Below are positions 1,152 to 63,904 of a DNA stretch of 64,000 nt, in pieces (the first letter of the stretch is position 1; the number at the start of each line of letters is the position of its first letter). The translations under genes and the position numbers were made by a program. The notes under the pieces were generated by a model. That model was not told where the DNA came from and did not search any database. It saw nothing but the letters and a program-made list of their open reading frames with translations. Origin of the DNA: Chloroflexota bacterium (GTDB lineage: Bacteria; Chloroflexota; UBA11872; VXOZ01); NCBI GenBank assembly GCA_028874195.1, contig JAPPLM010000033.1, positions 1 to 64,000 of the forward strand, given 5' to 3'.

Positions 1152-1198
1152 CGCAGGTTGCAAACGTGTCCTGAGCCTGTCGAAGGGCCTGCGCTACC
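1152..1198. repeat. Nested intergenic repeat (GCGCAGG outer arms, TGTCGAAGG inner element)
   Basis: The outer arms GCGCAGGTTGCAAAC and CCTGCGCTACC flank an inner TCCTGAGCCTGTCGAAGGG. The same nested arrangement is found inside ybeY (6201-6268), and the uninterrupted outer palindrome appears at 23949-23969. The remaining part of the 1048-1334 gap shows no other feature. Confidence 0.7.
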
Positions 1199-4590: not shown

Positions 4591-5114
4591 TAATGGACGC
4601 ATACCAACCGCGTTATTCTTCTCCGGGTTCGGCACCGACGCTCCGGGACTGCCCCCTGTTGTCCTCGCATAGTGCCTTGAACGGATTCCCTGTATCCCCC
4701 AATCATAGGGATAGTTAACCTTGCGATTTTCCTGAATGCTCCTCCTGTTCGCACCACCCCGCACCGGCCCTTTCCCCCAAGGGTCGGTGTCGGCTTAAGG
4801 CGCGCGGTCGGGGGCCTCTGCGAAAAAGAGAATGACAGGCTTCCGGTAGCTTGATGAATGGAGCGATCTCCCTATGCCGCAAAGCCAGGAACGGCGTATA
4901 CTGTACCTAAAGACTATACGCCGCTCTACGGCACGATTACGGGTACGCATTGGAGGCCCCTGTGCGGTCGGGAGACCTGGCGAAGCGTGTCGGCACACTG
5001 CGGACGCGGGAATCCGTCGGCGGCCAAACGTTGGATAGCGCAGCCATAACCTTAAGAATCACCCAGAGTTGACTTGACGTATCCCCGTAGAAGGAGGCGC
5101 AAAGACACCCCCAG
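4591..5114 (+). other. Non-coding or decayed region downstream of the riboswitch
   Basis: Over 500 nt with no ORF I can recognise in any frame. A 41-codon frame from ATG 4593 and a 63-codon frame from 4858 show no family motif and no good ribosome-binding site. It may be the remnant of the riboswitch's original target gene, or a long leader to the glycosyltransferase. Confidence 0.5.
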
Positions 5115-5867
5115 ATGTCAATGAAGACACCGCCTCTCTCCGCTGTGACGGTCTCCCTTGTCCTCCCCGCGCTCAATGAAGCAGACAACATCGCCGCCAC
5201 CCTGGATGACTGCGTGCAGACCCTCCGGCGGGTGGCGCAAGACTACGAGATAATCGTCGTTGACAACGACAGTACGGACGATACCGCGGACATCGTCCGT
5301 CAATTCCAGTCCGAGAATGCGCGCGTCCACCTGATTCATCAGCCCATTCGCGGCTACGGTTCCGCCATTTGGACGGGACTCAAGGCGGCACAGTTGGAGA
5401 TCGTGGGCTGGCGCGACTCGGATACGCAATACCGCACCGCCGATATCGTTCCCATGCTCAAGGCGTTAGACACGTACGACGTGGTGGTCGGCCACCGCGT
5501 GCAACGCCGGGACCCTTCCCACCGCCTGCTATTCGCGCTCCTCTGGAACGTGCTCAACCGCGTCCTCTTTGGGTTTGTGGTCCACGACATGGACTGCGGC
5601 TGCAAGATCTTTCGGCGCGAGGTGGTGGATACGCTTGATATTAAGGCGGCCGGGGCGGTGTTCAACGTGGAGTTTCTCGTGCAGGCCAAGCGCGCCGGCT
5701 TCCGTGTGGGCGAGGTCTCTATCAGCCACCTGCCGCGTCACGCGGGGGAAAATACCGGCGGCAGTTTGCGGGTGATCCTGCGCGCCATGCGGGAGGTGCT
5801 GCGGCTGCGGTGGCGCCTCTTGCGGGAACCTCGACCCATCCGAAACGCGCGGCCCACGCGCAACTGA
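5115..5867 (+). CDS. Glycosyltransferase family 2
   Basis: Inverting GT-A glycosyltransferase, close to the dolichol-phosphate-mannose / undecaprenyl-phosphate sugar transferase branch (250 aa). It would move a sugar from a nucleotide donor to a lipid carrier or polysaccharide at the inner face of the membrane. Visible motifs: VSLVLPALNEADNI at residues 13-26, IVVDNDSTDDT at 47-57, the metal-binding DSD at 101-103 (families usually show DXD here), and the acceptor region DCGCKIFRREV near 157. The C-terminus is basic and arginine-rich with no transmembrane helix. ATG 5115 lies after a GGAGG-like run. The end lies near the ybeY start, suggesting co-transcription. It may be governed by the upstream c-di-AMP riboswitch, but distance makes that uncertain. 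Confidence 0.85.
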   Translation: MSMKTPPLSAVTVSLVLPALNEADNIAATLDDCVQTLRRVAQDYEIIVVDNDSTDDTADIVRQFQSENARVHLIHQPIRGYGSAIWTGLKAAQLEIVGWRDSDTQYRTADIVPMLKALDTYDVVVGHRVQRRDPSHRLLFALLWNVLNRVLFGFVVHDMDCGCKIFRREVVDTLDIKAAGAVFNVEFLVQAKRAGFRVGEVSISHLPRHAGENTGGSLRVILRAMREVLRLRWRLLREPRPIRNARPTRN

Positions 5868-5944
5868 CCGGCGACCGCCGGCCCACGAAGACGGAAGCCA
5901 ATGTCATTACTTTCCCCATTCTCCGACGCGCGGAAGTGCGCGCG

Positions 5945-6502
5945 ATGCTGACGGTCCTCTGGGAAGACGTAGCGGAACGTCCGGTACAGGGAGCGCTGCT
6001 CGCGCGTTTATTTACCGCGGCCTGCGACGTCACGAACACCGATGTGTCGGTCGAAGTGACGGTCATGCTCACCGGCGACGCTCGCTTGCGGGAGCTCAAC
6101 CGCACGTATCGCGGCGTGGCTGCGCCCACCGACGTGCTTTCGTTTGCTCAACGCGATGCTCTGCCCGTGGACGCAGAGCCTGCCCCGTACGTGATACGGG
6201 GTTGCAAAACCTGTCCTGAGTACTTCGACAAGCTCAGTACAGGCTCTGTCGAAGGGCCTGCGCTACCGCCGGAAGGATGCGCCTACCTGGGGGACATCGC
6301 GATTTCGTGGGAGCGCGTCCAAGCACAGGCGGCAGCTTACGGCCACAGCGAGGAGCGCGAACTCGCCTACTTATTTGTGCACGGCTTCCTGCATCTCATC
6401 GGGCACACGCACGCTGGAGAAACTGCTTATAAGCAAATGCGGGCGCGAGAAGAAGAGATTCTTGCCGCGGCAGGGCTGCAGCGCTCAACCAACGTCACTT
6501 AG
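5945..6502 (+). CDS. ybeY: Endoribonuclease YbeY with in-frame repeat insertion
   Basis: Metal-dependent endoribonuclease needed for 16S rRNA 3'-end maturation and ribosome quality control in the cytoplasm. The diagnostic HGFLHLIGHTH motif supplies zinc ligands His146, His150 and His156; PTDVLSFAQ (residues 61-69) and YLGDIAIS (114-121) are the other family blocks. Normal YbeY has about 12-15 residues between those two blocks; here there are 44. The excess matches a dispersed repeat (6201-6268) translated in frame as roughly residues 86-108. The rest is intact, so the protein could still fold with an extended loop. The start is uncertain: ATG 5945 fits family length, while the open frame extends upstream into the glycosyltransferase. 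Confidence 0.88.
   Translation: MLTVLWEDVAERPVQGALLARLFTAACDVTNTDVSVEVTVMLTGDARLRELNRTYRGVAAPTDVLSFAQRDALPVDAEPAPYVIRGCKTCPEYFDKLSTGSVEGPALPPEGCAYLGDIAISWERVQAQAAAYGHSEERELAYLFVHGFLHLIGHTHAGETAYKQMRAREEEILAAAGLQRSTNVT
6201..6268. repeat. Nested dispersed repeat inside ybeY
   Basis: The segment opens with GTTGCAAAACCTGTCCTGAG, passes a TTCGACAAGCTCAGTAC arm, and closes with CTGTCGAAGGGCCTGCGC. It shares both ends with the intergenic copy at 1152-1198. It carries an additional TACTTCGACAAGCTCAGTA palindromic core and stays open in the ybeY frame. Confidence 0.85.
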
Positions 6503-6867
6503 AGGCGACAGTCCGACGCACGCAAATGAACCGTATATAGTATGTAGTGTAAACTTTCACATATACTATGTTATTATTAGTTCGACTGACTTTCTATCAA
6601 AAGCACGCTAAACCCATACAATACTCGAAAGAGAATGGGTGTAGCTCACGCGAATACTATGTACTTAGCACTCTTTGGCAACATTGAGAAGACCACTTCT
6701 AAGCCTGCTAAAGAGTGGTATGCTAATGATGTGGGAGAAGGTGAGCGGTCGGATCAGCGAGAATGCCCTGACTTTTGGTGAAACGGTCAAAGCGTTCCCC
6801 ACAATGCATCCTAGTGAAGTCGAGGATGCGTCTCAACCGGGCACGTCAGACCAAGGGGAGAAAGAGT
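6503..6867 (+). other. AT-rich gap before the small two-gene module
   Basis: Composition drops well below the neighbours. It contains an imperfect inverted pair, ATAGTATGT and ACATATACTAT, near 6535-6570. A possible 48-codon frame at 6635-6781 lacks a good ribosome-binding site and family motif, so I do not call it a gene. Confidence 0.4.
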
Positions 6868-7209
6868 ATGACATCGGAAGAGATAGCGGGGGAGGACCGC
6901 AACCGTCTATATGAGATATTGCGATATGCAGGTCTAGAATCAGAGCAGACGGAGCGCGTAATAGAAGAGTTGTTCGACGACAGATATGTCGGGTCTCTTC
7001 TGTGGGAAACCTTCATTGGGCGCCTTTACGCCTCAATGTTGAGGGCACTGATTGGTGATGGGATATCGCTAGTCAAGAACGAGACGATTATTGACCAGTT
7101 GCAGCTCCTGTATAGGCTGTTTCCTGATCATCCCGGCTTACAAAGCGGTGTGCCTGTAATCATGGCGTCCCTCAGTACCCCATCTGTGGTTGACGGATTA
7201 GGGCGATAA
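6868..7209 (+). CDS. Small hypothetical protein, first of a coupled pair
   Basis: A 113-residue, mostly alpha-helical acidic protein with no motif I recognise. ATG 6868 is chosen because AAGGGGAGAAAG lies just upstream; longer in-frame starts lack this. Its TAA overlaps the ATG of the next gene by one base, a strong sign of translational coupling. Base composition is AT-richer than the surrounding housekeeping genes, consistent with recent acquisition. It is cytoplasmic by sequence, and its partner has a membrane anchor, so a membrane-recruited pair is possible. A small toxin-antitoxin or immunity-type module is only a guess. Confidence 0.6.
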   Translation: MTSEEIAGEDRNRLYEILRYAGLESEQTERVIEELFDDRYVGSLLWETFIGRLYASMLRALIGDGISLVKNETIIDQLQLLYRLFPDHPGLQSGVPVIMASLSTPSVVDGLGR

Positions 7210-7439
7210 TGGCCAAACGACAGGATGGTATCACTGCTAGGTTGTTGTTGACCAGAATGGGGAACCATCAGGCTGAAGTTCTGTCTGACATCCTAAGCAA
7301 TCTAGACGAAGCAAGTGCAACACAAGCAGACATTGATTTGTCGATTGAGAAAGCTCTGCGAAACCATACTATAGCACTCGTAGTGTTGATGCTCGCAATG
7401 CACGCAATTACGATCGGCATTGTCTTTGCTATTAGGTAG
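7209..7439 (+). CDS. Small tail-anchored membrane protein, second of the pair
   Basis: A 76-residue protein with a polar, heptad-like N-terminal half (roughly residues 18-50, possible coiled coil). A single C-terminal hydrophobic segment (about 54-74, IALVVLMLAMHAITIGIV) ends in AIR. This is a tail-anchored layout resembling the small DUF1640-like protein at 11071, though the sequences are not obviously homologous. ATG 7209 overlaps the previous stop. No enzymatic motif is visible. The following 235 nt hold only a short CTCAC-TTCG-GTGAG hairpin near 7503-7516. Confidence 0.6.
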   Translation: MAKRQDGITARLLLTRMGNHQAEVLSDILSNLDEASATQADIDLSIEKALRNHTIALVVLMLAMHAITIGIVFAIR

Positions 7440-7674
7440 AGATTGGGTGTAGACCAGCTTTCGATACCTTGTAAGGTGTTGACACTACAGCCATTCCTTG
7501 ACTCACTTCGGTGAGCTAGCTATAGTTGCTTACGTGCGAATCTGGAGCGGCTGTCCCCCCTACAATCTTTGCTGAACTATCCCCCTCCCCGGTTAAGACG
7601 AATGGAGTTCCCTGTTTCCCGTGAATACGCTGAAATTCGCTTGCCGTCAATTGCCAAGGCGCCATTGCCGATTG

Positions 7675-8469
7675 CTACTCCGGATACCAGTCAGGATCGT
7701 ACCGCCGGGCGTAGAAGCGCGTTGCCTTCGTTAGGTCCAGGTCGGCAACGAGCAGGTCTTCTTTGCCGTAGGGGACGTGCGCCAGCAGGTTGCCCTGGGG
7801 GTCGATGAGGCTGGTGGCTGAATTCTGGTAGCGCATGGCTTGGTTGACGCTTGCGAAGTAGACCGAATTCTCTTCGGCGCGGCACAGCATGGCCTTTTCA
7901 TAGAAGGACTCGCCCCATGCAGTGAGCGTCTTGCCGTCCTTGTCGCTGCCGGTCACCTGGGGTTGGAAGACGATGCGCGCGCCGCGTACGGCCGGCCAGC
8001 GCACGGTCTCCGGATAGCGCCACCCCTCGTGGCAGATCGTGATGCCAAACACCGCGCCGGCAGTGCGGAATACCCGCCGCTTGCCGTCGGGCACGTAGTT
8101 TCGTGATTCGCCGCCGGGCGTAATCTGGTTCTTCGTCTGGTAGCCCAGCACGCGCCCGGCGGCCGAGATCACCACGGCGCGATTCTCCAACCCCAGTTCG
8201 CTCACCCACTCCAACCCGACAATGGCCGCCACGCGGTGCGTACGGCAGGCGGCGCGCAGGCGCTTGAGGGCCTCTTCCATAACGACTTGATCTACTGCTG
8301 GAAGATCGAAGCTCGCGCCCCGCAGACCGGGCAGATAAGCCTCTGGAAAACAGGCAATTGCGACCTGCTCTGCCGCGCAGCGAGCGAGAACGGCATTGAT
8401 CTTCGCGACGCCGTGCAACACGGACTCCGGCTGTCGCAGCGGCGCCAAGCCCACGCGGATCGTCTTCAT
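7675..8469 (-). CDS. Carbon-nitrogen hydrolase (nitrilase superfamily)
   Basis: Cysteine amidase/nitrilase-fold enzyme (264 aa) hydrolysing non-peptide C-N bonds. The catalytic triad is clear: Glu43 in CFPEAYLPG, Lys113 in TKNQI and Cys146 in ICHEGWRYPE. Length is typical of single-domain members such as N-carbamoylase, beta-ureidopropionase or omega-amidase types; the substrate cannot be assigned. Start 8469 (MKTIRVGLAP) follows an AGAGAGG run by about 7 nt, while a longer frame to 8490 has no site. It fits with the formamidase, acylase and amidohydrolase genes elsewhere in the window as part of an amide-degrading repertoire. Monocistronic, flanked upstream by palindromic repeats. Confidence 0.9.
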   Translation of the reverse strand: MKTIRVGLAPLRQPESVLHGVAKINAVLARCAAEQVAIACFPEAYLPGLRGASFDLPAVDQVVMEEALKRLRAACRTHRVAAIVGLEWVSELGLENRAVVISAAGRVLGYQTKNQITPGGESRNYVPDGKRRVFRTAGAVFGITICHEGWRYPETVRWPAVRGARIVFQPQVTGSDKDGKTLTAWGESFYEKAMLCRAEENSVYFASVNQAMRYQNSATSLIDPQGNLLAHVPYGKEDLLVADLDLTKATRFYARRYDPDWYPE

Positions 8470-28127: not shown

Positions 28128-31007
28128 CTACGGGAGGACGATGCGGAGCGCGGTTCCCCAGAAGGTGAGCACGTACACCTCGCCATCGGCATCGGTGCCG
28201 AATGACGAAACCGACCGCGGGCTCACGGCGATCTCAACCACGTCGCCGCCATCCGGAGGCAGCGCCCACAGTTGCCCGCGGCAGAAGTCCGAGAAGAGGT
28301 AGTGCCCGACGAGCGCCGGGATGGCCTTTCCCCGGTACACCAGGCCGCCCGTGACCGAGCAACCGAGGTGGTGTCCGTACTCCACAACGGGCAGGATGGT
28401 GTCAGTCGGATCACACCCCACCCGGGGAATATTGCAGCGCGTGCCTTCTAACCGGGCCCAGCCGTAGTTGCCGCCGGCCTCGATGCGGTCGATCTCCTCG
28501 ATATCCTCTCTCCCGACATCGCCCGCCCACAGGACGCCGGTTGCCGGGTCGAACGCCATCCGCCACGGGTTGCGTAGCCCGTACGCCCAGATCTCGGGCC
28601 GAGCGCCCTCTACTTCCACGAACGGGTTGTCGGGCGGGACGGCGTAGGGCGAGGCTTCTGAGGCCTCACTCACGTCGATGCGGATGACACTGCCCAGCAG
28701 GTTTCCTAGGTTCTGGCCATTTTGGGACAATCCTCCGTCGCCAAGGCTGAGGTACAGCATCCCGTCGGGTCCGAAGCGGATGCTGCCGCCGTTGTGGTTA
28801 AGACGCGGCTGCCCGACCTCCAGGACTACGAGCTCGGAGCCGGAACGTACGCGCCGCGGGTTATCGAGGTCCACCGAGAAGCGCGAGAGCCGCGTCCTGA
28901 GCGGCACACCCCGCACTGAATAGTAGAGCCAGAGATGGCCGGTCTCCTCGAACCGTGGGTCAAGGGCGACGCTGAGGAGGCCATCCTCGGTACTTACCAA
29001 AGATACCTGGTCACTGATGTCGAGCAGCTCGACGAACTCGTCGCCATCGGGGTGAGGCAGCAGCAGGATACGGCCTTCCCGCTCGGCTACGAACGCGCCG
29101 GAGCCGGCTGGCCCAATCGGGTACGTGCCAATCTCGACCGGCTGCTCGAACTTTCGTCCGCCGAACACCTCCTGGAGTGCGACCGCGAGCGGAGCCTGGG
29201 AGGGCTGGGGGGCCGTGCCCGCAGGCGCGACACGAACCGGTACCGGACTGCCCGGAATCTCCCCACTCAATTGGTTACCGGTGACCCACAGACTTGTCAG
29301 TTTGGCGAGGCTGCCCAGTGCCGGTGGAAACTCCCCGGTTAGTTGATTGTTGTGAAGCCACAGCTGTTCGAGATTCGCTAGGTTGGCCAGTTCCGACGGA
29401 ATCTCTCCGGTCAGCCGGTTACTGGTGAGCCGCAGACTTATCAGGTTGGCGAGGCTGCCCAGTTCCGGCGGAATTTCACCGGTCAGCCCGTTACCGCTGA
29501 GCCACAGCTGTTCGAGATTCGCTAGGCTGCCCAGTTCCGGCGGAATCTCCCCGCTTAGCCGGTTACTTTCGAGCCACAGTTCTTTCAAGTTGGCGAGGCT
29601 GCCCAGTTCCGATGGTATCTCCCCGCTCAGTTGGTTACCGCTGAGCCACAACTGTTCGAGATTCGCTAGGCTGCCCAGTTCCGGCGGTATCTCCCCACTC
29701 AGTTGATTAGTGCTGAGCCGCAGAATTGTCAGGTTGGCGAGGCTGCCCAATTCCGGCGGTATCCCTCCGGTCAGCTGGTTCCGTTCGAGCCGCAGCCATG
29801 TCAGGTTGGCGAGGCCGCCCAGTTCCGATGGTATCTCCCCGGTCAATTGGTTACCGTTGAGGCCCAGCCATGTCAGGTTGGCAAGTCTGCCCAGCTCCGG
29901 CGGAATCTCCCCGGTCAGTTGGTTCCAGTCGAGGCTCAACCATGTCAGGTTGGCGAGGCCGCCCAGTTCCGATGGTATCTCCCCGGTCAGCCGGTTACTG
30001 CCGAGCCACAGTCTTGTCAGGTTGGCAAGTCTGCTCAACTCCGGCGGTATCTCCCCGGTCAACTGGTTCCCGCTGAGGCCCAACCTTGTCAGGTTGGCGA
30101 GGTCGCCCAGTTCCGTTAGTATCTCCCCGGTCAACTGGTTCCCGATGAGAAACAGCCATTCCAGGTTGGCGAGGCTGCCCAGCTCCGGCGGTATCTTCCC
30201 GCTCAATTGGTTCCGATTGAGCCACAGTCCTGTTAGGTTGGCGAGGCTGCCCAACTCCGGCGGTATCTCCCCGGTTAGCTGATTCCGATTGAGCCGCAGT
30301 TCTGTCAGGTTAGAGAGGCTGCCCAGCTCCGGCGGTATCTTCCCGCTCAATTGGTTCCGATTGAGCCACAGTCCTGTTAGGTTGGCGAGGCTGCCCAACT
30401 CCGGCGGTATCTCCCCGGTTAGCTGATTCCGATTGAGCCGCAGTTCTGTCAGGTTAGAGAGGCTGCCCAGCTCCGGCGGTATCTCCCCGCTCAACTGGTT
30501 ATTGCTGAGGCTCAGGTGTGTGACGCGTCCGCTTGCGTCAACGGTAACGCCGTGCCATTCTCCGATTGGCGCACTGCTCAGCCACTTGCCGCTGTGCTCC
30601 CACTGTTCGCCACCTGTGGCGTTGAACAGGGCGACGAGCGCCTCTCTGTCCCGTGCCACGGCCGCGGCGATGCCGCCGGGGGCGTAGTCCGCTTCCCATT
30701 CAAAGCGTTCGGTGTTGAGCCGCTGCACGAGGCCGTTGGGACCGTTGATCCAGGTGCGGTAGCCGTCGGTGAAGGCGGTAAAGTTGTCAGCCTTGCGCCA
30801 GACCAGCAGGCCGCCAGTGGTCTGCTGCTCGCTGTTGCCGTTGGCAGCGTAGCGTTGATCCTCCAGGCACTCGCCGACGATATCGTGGCCGATGAGATCG
30901 CGCAGCGTCTTGAAGCCGAACACGAACTGGCAGTCGGCGGCGAGAACCGTACTCGGTGCAAGCAGCGCCAAAAGAAGTCCAAGTATGAGCCCACTAAGGC
31001 GTTTCAA
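28128..31007 (-). CDS. Secreted LRR protein fused to a glucose/sorbosone dehydrogenase-type beta-propeller
   Basis: A multi-domain secreted protein (about 959 aa). Residues 1-24 are a signal peptide (MKRLSGLILG, hydrophobic core, cleavage after VLAA). Residues 25-110 are the CQFVFGFKTLRDLIG...WRKADN...TWINGPNG module, also found in the RCC1 gene upstream. About 18 plant-type leucine-rich repeats of 24 residues follow (about 164-596), with consensus LxLxxNQLTGEIPPELGSLANLT. From about 620 a six-bladed propeller of the GSDH family appears, with HNGGSIRFGPDG, GLRNPWRMAFDP, GNYGWARLEG and FSDFCRGQLWAL. It may bind and oxidise sugars outside the cell; PQQ binding cannot be confirmed. TTG 31007 has GAGG upstream and gives a clean signal peptide. 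Confidence 0.85.
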   Translation of the reverse strand: MKRLSGLILGLLLALLAPSTVLAADCQFVFGFKTLRDLIGHDIVGECLEDQRYAANGNSEQQTTGGLLVWRKADNFTAFTDGYRTWINGPNGLVQRLNTERFEWEADYAPGGIAAAVARDREALVALFNATGGEQWEHSGKWLSSAPIGEWHGVTVDASGRVTHLSLSNNQLSGEIPPELGSLSNLTELRLNRNQLTGEIPPELGSLANLTGLWLNRNQLSGKIPPELGSLSNLTELRLNRNQLTGEIPPELGSLANLTGLWLNRNQLSGKIPPELGSLANLEWLFLIGNQLTGEILTELGDLANLTRLGLSGNQLTGEIPPELSRLANLTRLWLGSNRLTGEIPSELGGLANLTWLSLDWNQLTGEIPPELGRLANLTWLGLNGNQLTGEIPSELGGLANLTWLRLERNQLTGGIPPELGSLANLTILRLSTNQLSGEIPPELGSLANLEQLWLSGNQLSGEIPSELGSLANLKELWLESNRLSGEIPPELGSLANLEQLWLSGNGLTGEIPPELGSLANLISLRLTSNRLTGEIPSELANLANLEQLWLHNNQLTGEFPPALGSLAKLTSLWVTGNQLSGEIPGSPVPVRVAPAGTAPQPSQAPLAVALQEVFGGRKFEQPVEIGTYPIGPAGSGAFVAEREGRILLLPHPDGDEFVELLDISDQVSLVSTEDGLLSVALDPRFEETGHLWLYYSVRGVPLRTRLSRFSVDLDNPRRVRSGSELVVLEVGQPRLNHNGGSIRFGPDGMLYLSLGDGGLSQNGQNLGNLLGSVIRIDVSEASEASPYAVPPDNPFVEVEGARPEIWAYGLRNPWRMAFDPATGVLWAGDVGREDIEEIDRIEAGGNYGWARLEGTRCNIPRVGCDPTDTILPVVEYGHHLGCSVTGGLVYRGKAIPALVGHYLFSDFCRGQLWALPPDGGDVVEIAVSPRSVSSFGTDADGEVYVLTFWGTALRIVLP
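30181..30468 (-). repeat. Perfect 144-bp tandem duplication within the LRR array
   Basis: Bases 30181-30324 and 30325-30468 appear identical and encode two 24-residue LRR units each. The wider array (about 29270-30510) has a 72-bp period with ordinary divergence, so this duplication is recent or maintained by conversion. Confidence 0.85.
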
Positions 31008-31085
31008 CGTAGCGACCTCATTATGTGCGCGTGGACACCCTCGGCTTGCCACACCAGTGAAGCTGGCGTTGTGAGTTGCAAGCGA

Positions 31086-32900
31086 TCACGGCAGCGCCGT
31101 CGACGCAGTGAACCGAGCGGGATAGGGGATGACCCCGGCTGCGCCCCAGCAGACGAGCCCGCCTTCGCTGTCGATGCCGCACATGTGGCGCGTCCCGGCG
31201 CCCAGGCTCTGGAACCCGGTCATGGCCAGTATCTCACTGCTGGGCAGATACTGGCTCTTCTCATTGTTCCAGCACGACAGCGAGCCGTCGCTCTCCCTGA
31301 TCGCGCAGTTGGGATTGCCGCCCGTGGCGATATCGACGTAGTTGATGTCGCCGAAGCCCTGCGCGTCATCGCTCCCGCCGGGCACGGCATAGCGGCTGTC
31401 GGCGTGGTAGCCCCAGCAGACCGCCTTCTTGTCGTCGCGGATCGCGCATGTGTGCCCTTCGCCAGCCGTGATGTCGATGTACCGGTGCGCGCCGCTCGGC
31501 GAAATCGTCGACGTGTGATTGCCCTTGCCGCCGATGTCGTCGGGTGTGCCGTCGCCCTCCCGGTCGAAGAAGATCGTCTCTCCCCAGCAGACTATGCTCT
31601 GGTCGCTCTTAATTGCACAGATGTGGGTTGCGCCAACGGCGACATGGGAGAAGGTGCCGCTGGGCTCATTTAGGCGGTCGTGGCTATCGTTGCCCCAGCA
31701 CTCGATCGTGCCGTCGGTCTTGATCCCGCAGGTCAGATCGGGACCGGCGTCCAGCGTGGTGAATGTGCCGGTGGGCGGGACTGCGGCGGCAATCGTCTGG
31801 CCGGCTATGTTTGTGCCTGCCGGACCCACACCGCCCCAGCAGGCGACCGTGCCGTCGGATTTCAGCGCGCATGCGTGGACGTGGCCGGATGAGACCTGTA
31901 TGAATGTTCCCGTAGCAGGCGCGTTGAGCTGTTTCCAGCCATTGCGCCCACCCCAACAGACGATGTTTCCATCGGAATTCAGCGCGCAACTGAAGCCGTC
32001 CCCGCCGTCAGTCTGCTCGAACGCCCCCATCGGCGGCGTGAACAGGCCGCCGTCGTCGATGCCCCAGCAGGTGAGTGCATTATCGGCGTCCAGTGCGCAG
32101 TTGGCGAAACTGCCGACCGAGATGGATGCGAATGAGCCGGCGGGAGCGGTCGTCTGGCTCGGATATGCGAGTTGCCAACCCCAACAATGGATTGTGCCGT
32201 CTTCCGCGAGGCCGCAACCGTAGAGATCGGTGGCGCTCATCTCGATCGCGGTGAACTTGACCCCGGCCGGCGCGGTATTGATCTGTACGTTGGGGCTGCG
32301 GGAATCGGAGTCACCCGGTAAGGGGTTGTTGTACGCCGAGTGGCCGCCCCAGCACTCGACGGAGCCGTCCTTGGCCAGGGCGCAGCCGTTATACAAGGCC
32401 AACGTGACATCGACGAACGGACCCGCGCCAATGGGCCCCGCCGAACGGTTATGGGACTGCCGGCCGAAGCACACGACGGAGCCGTCTTTGCGGATGGCGC
32501 AGGCATTTGCGAAGCCCGCCTCCACCATAGTCCAGTCGGTGATCGCCGCGCCGTTGTCATCGGGAATCACCAAGCGGGCGTCGCCCGCCTTGCCCCAGCA
32601 GACGAGTTCGCCGTTCGTCTTGATCGCGCAGGCGTGGTAGTTGCCCACGCTCAGGGAGCCGGGCTTGAATTTGACCGTGCTCGGAGGCGTGTTCACCCAG
32701 CCGGTGTAGTCGGCTGCGGGATTGGCGATCCACTCGCTCCAGTCCCGATGGTCGCTCTCGCGGTGTGTGCCGTTCTCCTGTTCCGGGTAACCCCAACACA
32801 TCACGCTGCCGTCGGTCAGGATACCGCAGGTGAAGAAGGAACCGGCGGAGATGGAGTCAAACCGCTGCGAACGGTAGCGCCACCTGCCCCAATCGCTCAC
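31086..32900 (-). CDS. RCC1-type beta-propeller repeat protein, downstream part
   Basis: A 604-residue frame with 13 repeats centred on CAIKxDGSVxCWG, spaced about 40-50 residues. Each carries a pair of cysteines across one blade and resembles RCC1/BLIP-II propeller blades. There is no signal peptide here; it lies in the upstream frame (32897-33409), which also holds one more repeat, for 14 in total, enough for two seven-bladed propellers. The GTG start overlaps the upstream TGA as GTGA. Either the two are translated by coupling, or one gene has been split by a frameshift; domain continuity favours the second. It probably functions outside the cell as a binding scaffold. The LRR gene follows 78 nt downstream. 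Confidence 0.8.
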   Translation of the reverse strand: MSDWGRWRYRSQRFDSISAGSFFTCGILTDGSVMCWGYPEQENGTHRESDHRDWSEWIANPAADYTGWVNTPPSTVKFKPGSLSVGNYHACAIKTNGELVCWGKAGDARLVIPDDNGAAITDWTMVEAGFANACAIRKDGSVVCFGRQSHNRSAGPIGAGPFVDVTLALYNGCALAKDGSVECWGGHSAYNNPLPGDSDSRSPNVQINTAPAGVKFTAIEMSATDLYGCGLAEDGTIHCWGWQLAYPSQTTAPAGSFASISVGSFANCALDADNALTCWGIDDGGLFTPPMGAFEQTDGGDGFSCALNSDGNIVCWGGRNGWKQLNAPATGTFIQVSSGHVHACALKSDGTVACWGGVGPAGTNIAGQTIAAAVPPTGTFTTLDAGPDLTCGIKTDGTIECWGNDSHDRLNEPSGTFSHVAVGATHICAIKSDQSIVCWGETIFFDREGDGTPDDIGGKGNHTSTISPSGAHRYIDITAGEGHTCAIRDDKKAVCWGYHADSRYAVPGGSDDAQGFGDINYVDIATGGNPNCAIRESDGSLSCWNNEKSQYLPSSEILAMTGFQSLGAGTRHMCGIDSEGGLVCWGAAGVIPYPARFTASTALP

Positions 32901-48522: not shown

Positions 48523-49005
48523 TCAATAGCCGGTGAGGTTGTAGACGAGGTTTAGGAGTTCGAAGGGACTGAAGTGCTTGTGGAGCGTGCGATCCGGCTG
48601 ACTCAGGCTTTCAGGTGGATTTGAATCTCGAGCGGATGGGTCGGTTAGCAGGATAACTGGCACGTGGGTGAAGACCGGATCACGCTTGAGTTCCTGATAT
48701 GGCGTTTCCGATTCATTGGGGGAGAGGCCAAAGTCCAGAATTACGAGATCTAAGCTCTCGCTTTGCGCCGCAGCGCGCAATTCTTCCAGGGACGACGCCT
48801 CCACCACGCTCGTACGCTTGTTTGCCAGGGCAGCGCGCACGAGCGCCCGCAGGTGCCACGCCGCGGCAACCACGGCGATGGTCTTGCTGCGGCCTTTTGT
48901 TTCGGGGAGCACGTGGGGCTGGGAAATTGTGCTTCTCTCCAGTGGAACTGCACTGTACGGTATTGCGCTAAACCACAAGGCGTTGCGTTCGGCGCTCACA
49001 TTCAA
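48523..49005 (-). CDS. Degenerate response-regulator receiver protein
   Basis: A 160-residue protein with a CheY-like receiver fold from about residue 40. Asp91 in LVILDFGLSP is in the phospho-acceptor position, Thr121 in VILLTD and Lys143 in TLHKHFSPFELL fit the switch Thr/Lys. The N-terminal acidic pair (DD/DE) that binds magnesium is replaced by Ala-Ala in IAVVAAAWHLR. Phosphorylation may therefore be weak or absent. There is no output domain and no kinase gene nearby, so it could act by protein contact. The first 38 residues are unstructured and the true start could be later. Confidence 0.78.
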   Translation of the reverse strand: MNVSAERNALWFSAIPYSAVPLERSTISQPHVLPETKGRSKTIAVVAAAWHLRALVRAALANKRTSVVEASSLEELRAAAQSESLDLVILDFGLSPNESETPYQELKRDPVFTHVPVILLTDPSARDSNPPESLSQPDRTLHKHFSPFELLNLVYNLTGY

Positions 49006-49062
49006 TATCGTATTCTAGGTCATTGAAGGGTATCAGCGCAGGTCAAGCAGAGAATTGTCAGC

Positions 49063-49068
49063 TATAAT
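49063..49068 (+). promoter_or_regulatory. Candidate -10 box for the aldolase-phosphofructokinase pair
   Basis: A perfect TATAAT about 50 nt upstream of ATG 49119; no good -35 box is seen. Confidence 0.35.
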
Positions 49069-49118
49069 GGGATGTTGCAATCAGTAGGCCAAGAAGCGGT
49101 CAGCTCGCAGCAGTATAC

Positions 49119-62549: not shown

Positions 62550-62593
62550 GACTTCTTGGTGTAATTGGACAAGTTTAGTGTTAGGGGCTCGGT

Positions 62594-62974
62594 TTGGCTA
62601 GGCAAGTCAACGGCAGAAATCGCAAAATGGAAGTGCACGTGCGCATTAGCCGCCAATTCATGCGCCAAGCGGATGAGGAATTCGCCAAGGGCGATAGATT
62701 GCAAGCCTCGGAGAAGGCCTGGGGCGCGGCGGCGCATGCGGTAAAGGCGGTCGCCCAGCAACGAGGCTGGCGGCACGACGGGCATCGCTATCTCTTTGAC
62801 GCAATTGACAGCATTTACCGGGAAACGGGCGACACCGAGTTGCGGGGGCTATTTGGAACTGCCAATGCTCTGCACATGAACTTCTATGAGGATTGGCAAT
62901 CGGCTGAATACGTGCAAGACGGCATTGAGCGGGTGAAACTTTTGCTAGAGAAACTGGAGCCGCTGGCTGAGTGA
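62594..62974 (+). CDS. PaREP1/HEPN-family protein, copy 1
   Basis: A 126-residue all-alpha protein matching the PaREP1 branch of the HEPN clan. Visible blocks are RISRQFMRQADEEFAKGDRLQASEKAWGAAAHAVKAVA, then GWRHDGHRYLFDAID, and NALHMNFYEDWQ. The strong HDGHRYLF and LHMNFYE motifs are family-typical. Compared with classic HEPN RNases it lacks the R-x4-6-H motif, so nuclease activity is doubtful. Starts at TTG 62594. It is the first of three near-identical-length tandem copies and the most divergent. Confidence 0.85.
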   Translation: MARQVNGRNRKMEVHVRISRQFMRQADEEFAKGDRLQASEKAWGAAAHAVKAVAQQRGWRHDGHRYLFDAIDSIYRETGDTELRGLFGTANALHMNFYEDWQSAEYVQDGIERVKLLLEKLEPLAE

Positions 62975-63058
62975 CATACTGAAGGTAATGGGCGTGCTAC
63001 CTTGCAACGTGGATCTTTTCATGACGAGTAGCGCAGCAGCCATAACGCGGGGCACGTA

Positions 63059-63439
63059 GTGGCGAAGCAAGTCAATAACAGAGACCCCAAAGTGGAAGAA
63101 CACCTGCGCATCAGCCGCCAATTCCTGCGCCAAGCTGAAAGGGAGTTCGCGCAAGGCGACAGGTTGCAGGCCTCGGAGAAGGCTTGGGGCGCGGCGGCGC
63201 ATGCGGTGAAAGCCGTGGCTCAACAACGCAGGTGGCAGCACGACGGGCACCGGTACCTCTTTGGAGCAATAGATAAGATATATTACGAGACGGGAGACCA
63301 AGAGTTCATTGTCCTATTTAGAATAGCCAGTTCCTTGCACACGAACTTCTACGAGAACTGGCAATCGGACAATCTCGTGCAAGACGGCATCGAGCGGGTG
63401 AAAGTCCTGCTAGAGAGACTGGCGCCGCTGGTAGAGTGA
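63059..63439 (+). CDS. PaREP1/HEPN-family protein, copy 2
   Basis: A 126-residue paralogue starting exactly 465 bp after copy 1, with GTG 63059. The opening VEEHLRISRQFLRQAEREFAQGDRLQASEKAWGAAAHAVKAVAQQR is nearly the same as in copy 3, and HDGHRYLFGAID and SLHTNFYENWQ are conserved. The 84-nt spacer upstream aligns with the spacer before copy 3 (shared TTGCAAC, ATCTTTTCA and GACGA boxes). So the unit that duplicated includes gene plus leader. Confidence 0.88.
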   Translation: MAKQVNNRDPKVEEHLRISRQFLRQAEREFAQGDRLQASEKAWGAAAHAVKAVAQQRRWQHDGHRYLFGAIDKIYYETGDQEFIVLFRIASSLHTNFYENWQSDNLVQDGIERVKVLLERLAPLVE

Positions 63440-63523
63440 CAGGCCGCAGGTAGCAGGCATGCGAGATTGCAACGCACATCTTTTCACGACGAATAGGGCA
63501 GCAGTCAGGACACGGAGTTCATC

Positions 63524-63904
63524 GTGGCTACGCGAGTCAACGGCAGGGACCCGAAAGTAGAAGAACACCTGCGCATCAGCCGCCAATTCCTGCGCCAAGC
63601 TGAAAGGGAGTTCGCGCGAGGCGACAGGTTGCAGGCCTCGGAGAAGGCTTGGGGCGCGGCTGCGCACGCGGTGAAAGCCGTGGCTCAGCAACGCGGGTGG
63701 CGGCACGACGGGCACCGGTACCTTTTCGAAGCAATAGACAAGGTGTATTGCGAGACGGGAGACTCGGAGTTTCTTGTTCTCTTTAAAGTAGCTAATTCGT
63801 TGCACACGAACTTCTACGAGAACTGGCAAACGGACAATCTCGTGCAAGACGGTATCGAGCGCGTAGAGGCGCTGTTGGCAAAGCTGGAGCCGCTAACAGC
63901 CTGA
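63524..63904 (+). CDS. PaREP1/HEPN-family protein, copy 3
   Basis: A 126-residue paralogue starting exactly 465 bp after copy 2, with GTG 63524. Very close to copy 2 through about residue 65, more divergent around residues 75-95. HDGHRYLFEAID and SLHTNFYENWQ are again conserved. With no stop-codon or frame damage in any copy, all three look functional. The array may continue outside the window, but the last 96 nt show no fourth start. Confidence 0.88.
   Translation: MATRVNGRDPKVEEHLRISRQFLRQAEREFARGDRLQASEKAWGAAAHAVKAVAQQRGWRHDGHRYLFEAIDKVYCETGDSEFLVLFKVANSLHTNFYENWQTDNLVQDGIERVEALLAKLEPLTA

What the first reader, a model, noticed from the sequence alone, without database searches (positions are those of the whole stretch)
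5945..6502. Dispersed repeat translated in frame inside essential-type gene ybeY
The loop between PTDVLSFAQ and YLGDIAIS is about 25-30 residues too long and contains the nested intergenic repeat seen at 1152-1198 (same GTTGCAAA start and CCTGCGCTACC end). The frame stays open and the HGxLHLxGxxH zinc motif follows undisturbed. In-frame palindromic element insertion into proteins is well known for Rickettsia RPEs; this looks like an analogous case in an unrelated bacterium. The element adds a cysteine-containing peptide (GCKTCPEYF).
Basis: partly seen in the sequence, partly recalled or inferred. Interest (0 to 1): 0.78.

Follow-up and report, generated by a model that had tools for sequence, protein, structure and literature searches.

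The report
Nested repeat translated inside YbeY loop
In a group of uncultured Chloroflexi (nearest named genome: MAG SB0662_bin_44), a small mobile DNA hairpin landed in a surface loop of the widely conserved RNA-processing enzyme YbeY, and in some species further hairpins then landed inside it; the sister species preserve the steps and the reading frame is kept at every one.

Summary
Window 6173-6267 is a composite dispersed repeat read in frame inside an intact ybeY (5945-6502).

(1) The base unit is a genus-specific GTAG-tagged REP hairpin, GCAGGTTGCAAACCTGCGCTACC. Sister species carry a REP-associated transposase gene (RAYT) flanked by this same REP.

(2) Four same-genus YbeY orthologues preserve the build-up. 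G001 and G002 have only the base unit (loop 23 aa). G005 has two palindromes nested in it (39 aa). The window genome has one more inside those (47 aa). G003 has three REPs spaced exactly 66+66 nt (67 aa). All are in frame.

(3) Elsewhere in the genus the commonest nested insert is 23 or 47 nt, which would break the frame. In ybeY it is 24 or 48, through one extra A carried by only 4 of 61 copies in six genomes.

(4) This is not a gene-invading family like Rickettsia RPEs. Of 201 classifiable copies in 774 kb of the genome, ybeY is the only one inside a gene; 44% of random positions there score as coding.

AlphaFold keeps the YbeY fold and disorders the inserted part. Intragenic REPs are already known (Di Nocera 2013). 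The nested, frame-corrected series at one conserved site is the new part.

The parts
5945..6502 (+). ybeY, endoribonuclease / rRNA maturation RNase, 185 aa from the ATG at 5945, with a 47-aa loop (residues 68-114)
   Evidence: PF02130 and TIGR00043; 80% identity to L061; AlphaFold model matches S. aureus YbeY 7y7o, TM 0.87 by target
6173..6267 (+). whole composite element (95 nt) translated in frame; C71:68095-68189 is 96% identical over the full length
6173..6176 (+). level 0, first fragment of the base REP (GCAG)
   Evidence: alignment to G002/G001 ybeY and to dispersed copies
6177..6200 (+). level 1a, 24-nt insertion AGCCTGCCCCGTACGTGATACGGG carrying the CCCCGTA...TACGGGG palindrome
   Evidence: absent in G001/G002 ybeY, present in G005 ybeY and in intergenic composites
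6201..6208 (+). level 0, second fragment of the base REP (GTTGCAAA)
6209..6256 (+). levels 1b and 2, 48-nt insertion made of the CTGAGCCTGTCGAA / TTCGACARGCTCAG palindrome; 24 nt in G005 ybeY; commonly 23 or 47 nt in intergenic copies
6209..6209 (+). the extra A (GCAAA-A-CCTG) that makes the nested insertion a multiple of three; exact base within the A run is arbitrary
   Evidence: 4 of 61 copies in six genomes have it, including both ybeY copies
6221..6244 (+). level 2, extra 24 nt holding an inverted copy of the core (TACTTCGACAAGCTCAGTACAGG), absent from G005 ybeY; exact ends ambiguous
6257..6267 (+). level 0, last fragment of the base REP (CCTGCGCTACC; reverse complement GGTAGCGCAGG carries the GTAG tag)
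1153..1198 (+). intergenic sister copy: base REP with the 23-nt nested core, a length that would shift a reading frame

Best explanation
A GTAG-tagged REP (23 nt, 9-bp hairpin) inserted into the variable surface loop of ybeY in the ancestor of this Chloroflexi genus, or was already there and spread through it. REPs of this family are probably mobilised by a RAYT (HUH/Y1 transposase) acting on single-stranded DNA. Two other palindromic families then inserted into the REP in the lineage leading to the window genome and G005, a further inverted core copy was added in the window genome, and extra REP units were added in G003. Because ybeY is functional and probably important, only versions with a net multiple of three, no stop codon and a loop location survived. 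The clearest trace is one extra A that turns the usual 23/47-nt nested insertion into 24/48 nt. The added peptide (AEPAPYVIRGCKTCPEYFDKLSTGSVEGPALP) is most likely a tolerated, disordered passenger without a function of its own. Shown by sequence: presence, homology, nesting, open frame, the order of states across species, rarity in genes, and the REP-flanked RAYT in G001 and G002. Inferred: RAYT-driven movement, selection on frame, translation, tolerance.
For: Same-site orthologues form a series of 23, 23, 39, 47 and 67 aa loops, each difference made of repeat units. The REP is genus-restricted: 44-72 copies in the more complete genomes, 27 in the 69%-complete G005, 0 and 1 in two same-class genomes, controls 0. 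RAYT (NF047646) in G002 scores above cut-off and in G001 just below it (79.6 vs 80); both are flanked on each side by this same REP in inverted orientation. The base REP folds as a 9-bp, 3-nt-loop hairpin, z -4.7. Frame: 24/48 nt in ybeY against mainly 23/47 elsewhere, extra A in 4 of 61 copies; G003 ybeY REPs spaced 66 and 66 nt while intergenic G003 arrays are 58, 64, 65, 79, 101, 103, 117, 139. Purifying selection outside the loop: dN 0.14, dS 0.92 against G005. AlphaFold: pLDDT below 50 at residues 81-90 and 97-108, folded core. The loop is naturally variable, 7-46 aa outside the genus.
Against: No expression data. The RAYT flanked by this REP is absent from the window genome's own assembly; its own RAYT at C45 is flanked by a different GTAG-REP, so movement may be past or not RAYT-driven. 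Recombination between dispersed copies could also have built the composite. The two ybeY copies with the extra A share an ancestor, so as independent events the frame signal is one observation at about 4/61, suggestive rather than significant. The extra A also occurs in two intergenic copies of the window genome.
Confidence: 0.75

Rival explanations
1. The nested growth was produced by homologous recombination or gene conversion between the base REP in ybeY and composite copies elsewhere, rather than by successive transposition events in ybeY.
For: Ready-made composites with the same internal structure lie elsewhere: C71 96% over 95 nt, C18 100% over 76 nt. G000 and G005 agree at 83-100% of third positions in most of the tract 6125-6340 (75% in two windows) but only 20-66% in other parts of ybeY, so recombination has acted in this gene.
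Against: The ybeY copies carry the extra A, present in only two other copies in the six genomes. The C18 copy has a different, longer CCCCGTA palindrome, so it is not a full-length donor.
Confidence: 0.35
2. The insert has been put to use, for example the cysteines (GCKTC) bind metal or the loop contacts the ribosome, and is kept by selection for that function.
For: The loop is present in all five same-genus YbeY found, and the cysteine of GCK is kept in four of them.
Against: Loop content and length differ in every lineage (23 to 67 aa), G001 has GSK in place of GCK, and the model predicts disorder. The conserved cysteine is simply what the REP encodes in that frame.
Confidence: 0.06
3. Ordinary loop-length variation with a chance resemblance to the repeat, an assembly chimera, or a decaying pseudogene.
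For: This YbeY loop varies from 7 to 46 aa in unrelated genera without this repeat.
Against: The G002 loop matches the 23-nt REP consensus exactly; a separate MAG has a related composite at the same site; the catalytic motif is intact and dN is far below dS outside the loop.
Confidence: 0.03

Closest known systems
Intragenic GTAG REPs (Di Nocera, De Gregorio and Rocco 2013, PMC3733652), e.g. in Opitutus terrae, Thauera, Xanthomonas recB
   Same: GTAG-tagged hairpin repeats inserted within ORFs of conserved proteins; RAYT association; most copies intergenic; GTAG REPs already reported in one Chloroflexi species (Thermomicrobium roseum, GTAG-23)
   Different: Here other palindrome families are nested inside the REP, the successive states are seen in sister species at one orthologous site, and indels bring the nested units to multiples of three. 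That paper reports T. roseum REPs lying within small palindromes, the reverse nesting, outside this setting.
Rickettsia palindromic elements (RPE; Ogata et al. 2000, cited through PMC10969869 and PMC2229807)
   Same: Palindromic element translated in frame inside conserved housekeeping proteins and apparently tolerated
   Different: RPEs are about 105-150 bp and often intragenic (19 reading frames, later 44 in R. conorii); here 1 of 201 copies is in a gene, the sequence differs, and the element has a REP/RAYT signature
RAYT/REPtron system (TnpA-REP; PMC8266576)
   Same: Y1/HUH transposase gene flanked by inverted GTAG REPs, found in G001 and G002
   Different: The window genome's own RAYT at C45 is paired with another REP family; activity untested
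REPs as insertion targets (Tobes and Pareja 2006, PMC1525189, abstract only)
   Same: REPs act as preferred landing sites for other mobile DNA
   Different: There the guests are IS elements; here they are short palindromes, inside a coding gene

Membership tests
GTAG REP superfamily | terminal GTAG motif next to the hairpin | tested here: met
   Reverse complement GGTAGCGCAGGTTTGCAACCTGC; all 62 pattern copies keep it. In copies ending GCGC the last G of GTAG can pair in the stem, a small departure from a fully unpaired tag.
GTAG REP superfamily | stem 5-13 bp, loop 2-20 nt, 20-40 nt long | tested here: met
   9-bp stem, 3-nt loop, 23-26 nt
GTAG REP superfamily | many dispersed, mainly extragenic copies | tested here: met
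   62 perfect-pattern copies, control 0; none of the 67 single REPs with at most 1 mismatch scored as in-frame coding
GTAG REP superfamily | RAYT gene flanked by the cognate REP | tested here: met
   G001 L221 and G002 L224; not found in the window genome itself
GTAG REP superfamily | mobilised by the RAYT | not testable with these tools
   needs in vitro cleavage and strand-transfer assays
Rickettsia palindromic element (RPE) | in-frame insertion inside a conserved protein | tested here: met
   ybeY 5945-6502
Rickettsia palindromic element (RPE) | large share of copies inside genes | tested here: not met
   1 of 201 classifiable copies
Rickettsia palindromic element (RPE) | RPE sequence families of about 105-150 bp | not tested
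   element here is 23-95 nt; no RPE sequences were compared directly
Rickettsia palindromic element (RPE) | host in Rickettsiales | tested here: not met
   nearest named relative is a Chloroflexi MAG, SB0662_bin_44
YbeY (host gene) | family profile, H-G-x-L-H-L-x-G-x-x-H motif, fold | tested here: met

The most novel reading that the evidence does not exclude
The translated ybeY copy is also a source: the frame-corrected composite with the extra A, shaped by selection inside a gene, has seeded intergenic copies (C18:49039-49114 is identical over 76 nt), so coding constraint on one copy has shaped part of a non-coding repeat family.
Probability: 0.25. Interest if true: 0.65.

Novelty: new variant of a known kind. 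Interest (0 to 1): 0.52.

Why it matters
How short non-autonomous repeats enter proteins is usually inferred from single endpoints. Here intermediate states survive in sister species at one site of a widely conserved enzyme: base REP, REP with nested guests, and REP array. That makes it possible to test how loop location and frame filter insertions, and whether repeats can be a step-by-step source of new protein sequence. It also adds a further Chloroflexi lineage to the few cases of REP-decorated proteins.

Tried and rejected
(a) Genome-wide gene invasion: a first census flagged five other in-frame REP sites, but these were chance matches to the 11-nt REP end CCTGCGCTACC; with up to 3 mismatches 20 more appeared, all with 2-3 mismatches and likewise judged chance. 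(b) Composite copies inside open frames in G004, G005 and G002: their flanks have no convincing coding signal and the shared G004/G005 copy looks intergenic. (c) ybeY of G004 was not found with a second query, so that species is missing from the series. (d) Low dS in the loop between G000 and G005 first suggested recent conversion of the element; neighbouring genes are 87-95% identical, so the loop is at the normal distance and the outer parts of the window's ybeY are the anomaly. (e) No Rfam family at E up to 0.1 in 5000-7700. (f) No paper in the library contains the core 14-mers.

Full report
Observation. The ORF at 5945-6502 is an intact YbeY. Between PTDVLSFAQ and YLGDIAIS it has a 47-residue loop. 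In E. coli YbeY (1xm5) seven residues separate the matching aligned blocks. The loop contains a dispersed repeat, also present at 1153-1198. Genome-wide counts are far above controls: 224 cores against 2 and 62 REP patterns against 0.

Anatomy. Position by position, the 95-nt element at 6173-6267 resolves into a 23-nt base unit, GCAG/GTTGCAAA/CCTGCGCTACC, split by two insertions. The first (6177-6200, 24 nt) carries a CCCCGTA...TACGGGG palindrome. The second (6209-6256, 48 nt) carries the CTGAGCCTGTCGAA palindrome, itself enlarged by an inverted copy of its own core. The base unit folds as a 9-bp hairpin with a 3-nt loop, and on the other strand begins GGTAGCGC, the signature of GTAG REPs.

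Orthologues. Whole-genome search found ybeY in four of five same-genus genomes. G001 and G002 hold only the base REP (loop 23 aa; G001's copy has decayed to GCAGGATCCAAACCTGCGCTACC). G005, the nearest named relative (MAG SB0662_bin_44), holds both nested insertions without the inner inverted copy (39 aa). The window genome holds all levels (47 aa). G003 instead holds three REPs in direct orientation at exactly 66-nt spacing (67 aa). Outside the genus the loop is 7-46 aa, so it is a naturally tolerant loop.

Frame. The nested core insertion in intergenic composites of the window genome is most often 23 or 47 nt. In both ybeY copies it is 24 or 48, because of one extra A (GCAAAACCTG). In six genomes, 57 copies lack this A and 4 have it: the two ybeY copies and two intergenic copies of the window genome. 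The two ybeY copies share descent, so this is suggestive, not a formal test. The 66/66 spacing in G003 ybeY against 58, 64, 65, 79, 101, 103, 117 and 139 in intergenic G003 arrays points the same way. Outside the loop dN is 0.14 and dS 0.92 against G005, so the gene is under purifying selection.

Genome-wide setting. In 774 kb of sampled genome I classified 201 genuine copies by the coding signal of both flanks. Only the ybeY copy is inside a gene in frame. By the same classifier 44% of random positions in those stretches are coding. So this is an extragenic repeat with one exceptional intragenic copy, unlike Rickettsia RPEs. The stretches were chosen around known copies, and the classifier is a simple Markov model, not a full gene caller.

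Mobility. G002 encodes a protein above the NCBIfam cut-off for REP-associated tyrosine transposase (82.5 against 80 bits), and G001 one just below (79.6). Both are flanked on each side by this same REP in opposite orientations, a REPtron arrangement. The window genome has two other RAYTs above cut-off; the one at C45 is flanked by a different GTAG REP, GTAGCGCGGGGGCTTGTCCCCCGC. RAYT-driven insertion is therefore likely for the base REP but not shown. What moves the two guest palindromes is unknown; the core guest is widespread, found in 46 of 101 genomes searched.

Protein. AlphaFold with five sequences gives pTM 0.79. The core is confident, residues 81-90 and 97-108 are below pLDDT 50, and the fold matches S. 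aureus YbeY with TM 0.87. The insert is most simply a disordered surface addition.

Mosaic. The outer parts of the window's ybeY (about 5849-6088 and 6388-6502) are only 57-75% identical to G005, while neighbouring genes are 87-95% and the loop tract 86-96%. Recombination has therefore touched this gene, and gene conversion remains a real rival for how the composite was assembled.

Comparison with the literature. In-frame RPEs in Rickettsia are long known (PMC10969869, PMC2229807). Di Nocera et al. 2013 (PMC3733652) already described GTAG REPs within ORFs in many bacteria, and GTAG REPs in Chloroflexi. The kind is known. I found no report of nested palindromes accumulating at one coding site with the intermediate states preserved in sister species, but the library searched holds only open-licence papers.

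Noticed in passing
window 5849-6502 against L210 (G005) and L208 (G002): The outer parts of ybeY are much more diverged from the sister species than neighbouring genes or the loop tract, suggesting a recombinant gene.
   Followed up: partly
window about 6503-7650: About 1.1 kb downstream of ybeY has no alignable match in the sister contig L061/G005, while both sides align; it looks like an accessory insertion.
   Followed up: no
L214 (G000:C45:130985-131374 and flanks): A RAYT gene of the window genome is flanked by a second GTAG-REP family, GTAGCGCGGGGGCTTGTCCCCCGC, in inverted orientation.
   Followed up: partly
L150 (G000:C18 about 49000-49114), L118, L080: Intergenic composites carry yet another palindrome nested in the CCCCGTA hairpin and share longer flanks (TGACCCTGCTGTGCCGCAG), so the unit that spreads may be larger than 95 nt.
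   Followed up: no
window 28128-31052 (-): A 974-aa ORF with about 15 tandem 72-nt units read as leucine-rich repeats (LxxNQLTGEIPxELG), followed by a region resembling a sugar-dehydrogenase-type beta-propeller.
   Followed up: no
window 31086-32900 (-): A 604-aa ORF of repeated CxW/CWG units resembling RCC1-type beta-propeller repeats, next to the LRR gene.
   Followed up: no
window 62584-63813: Three direct repeats of at least 300 nt at 465-nt spacing.
   Followed up: no
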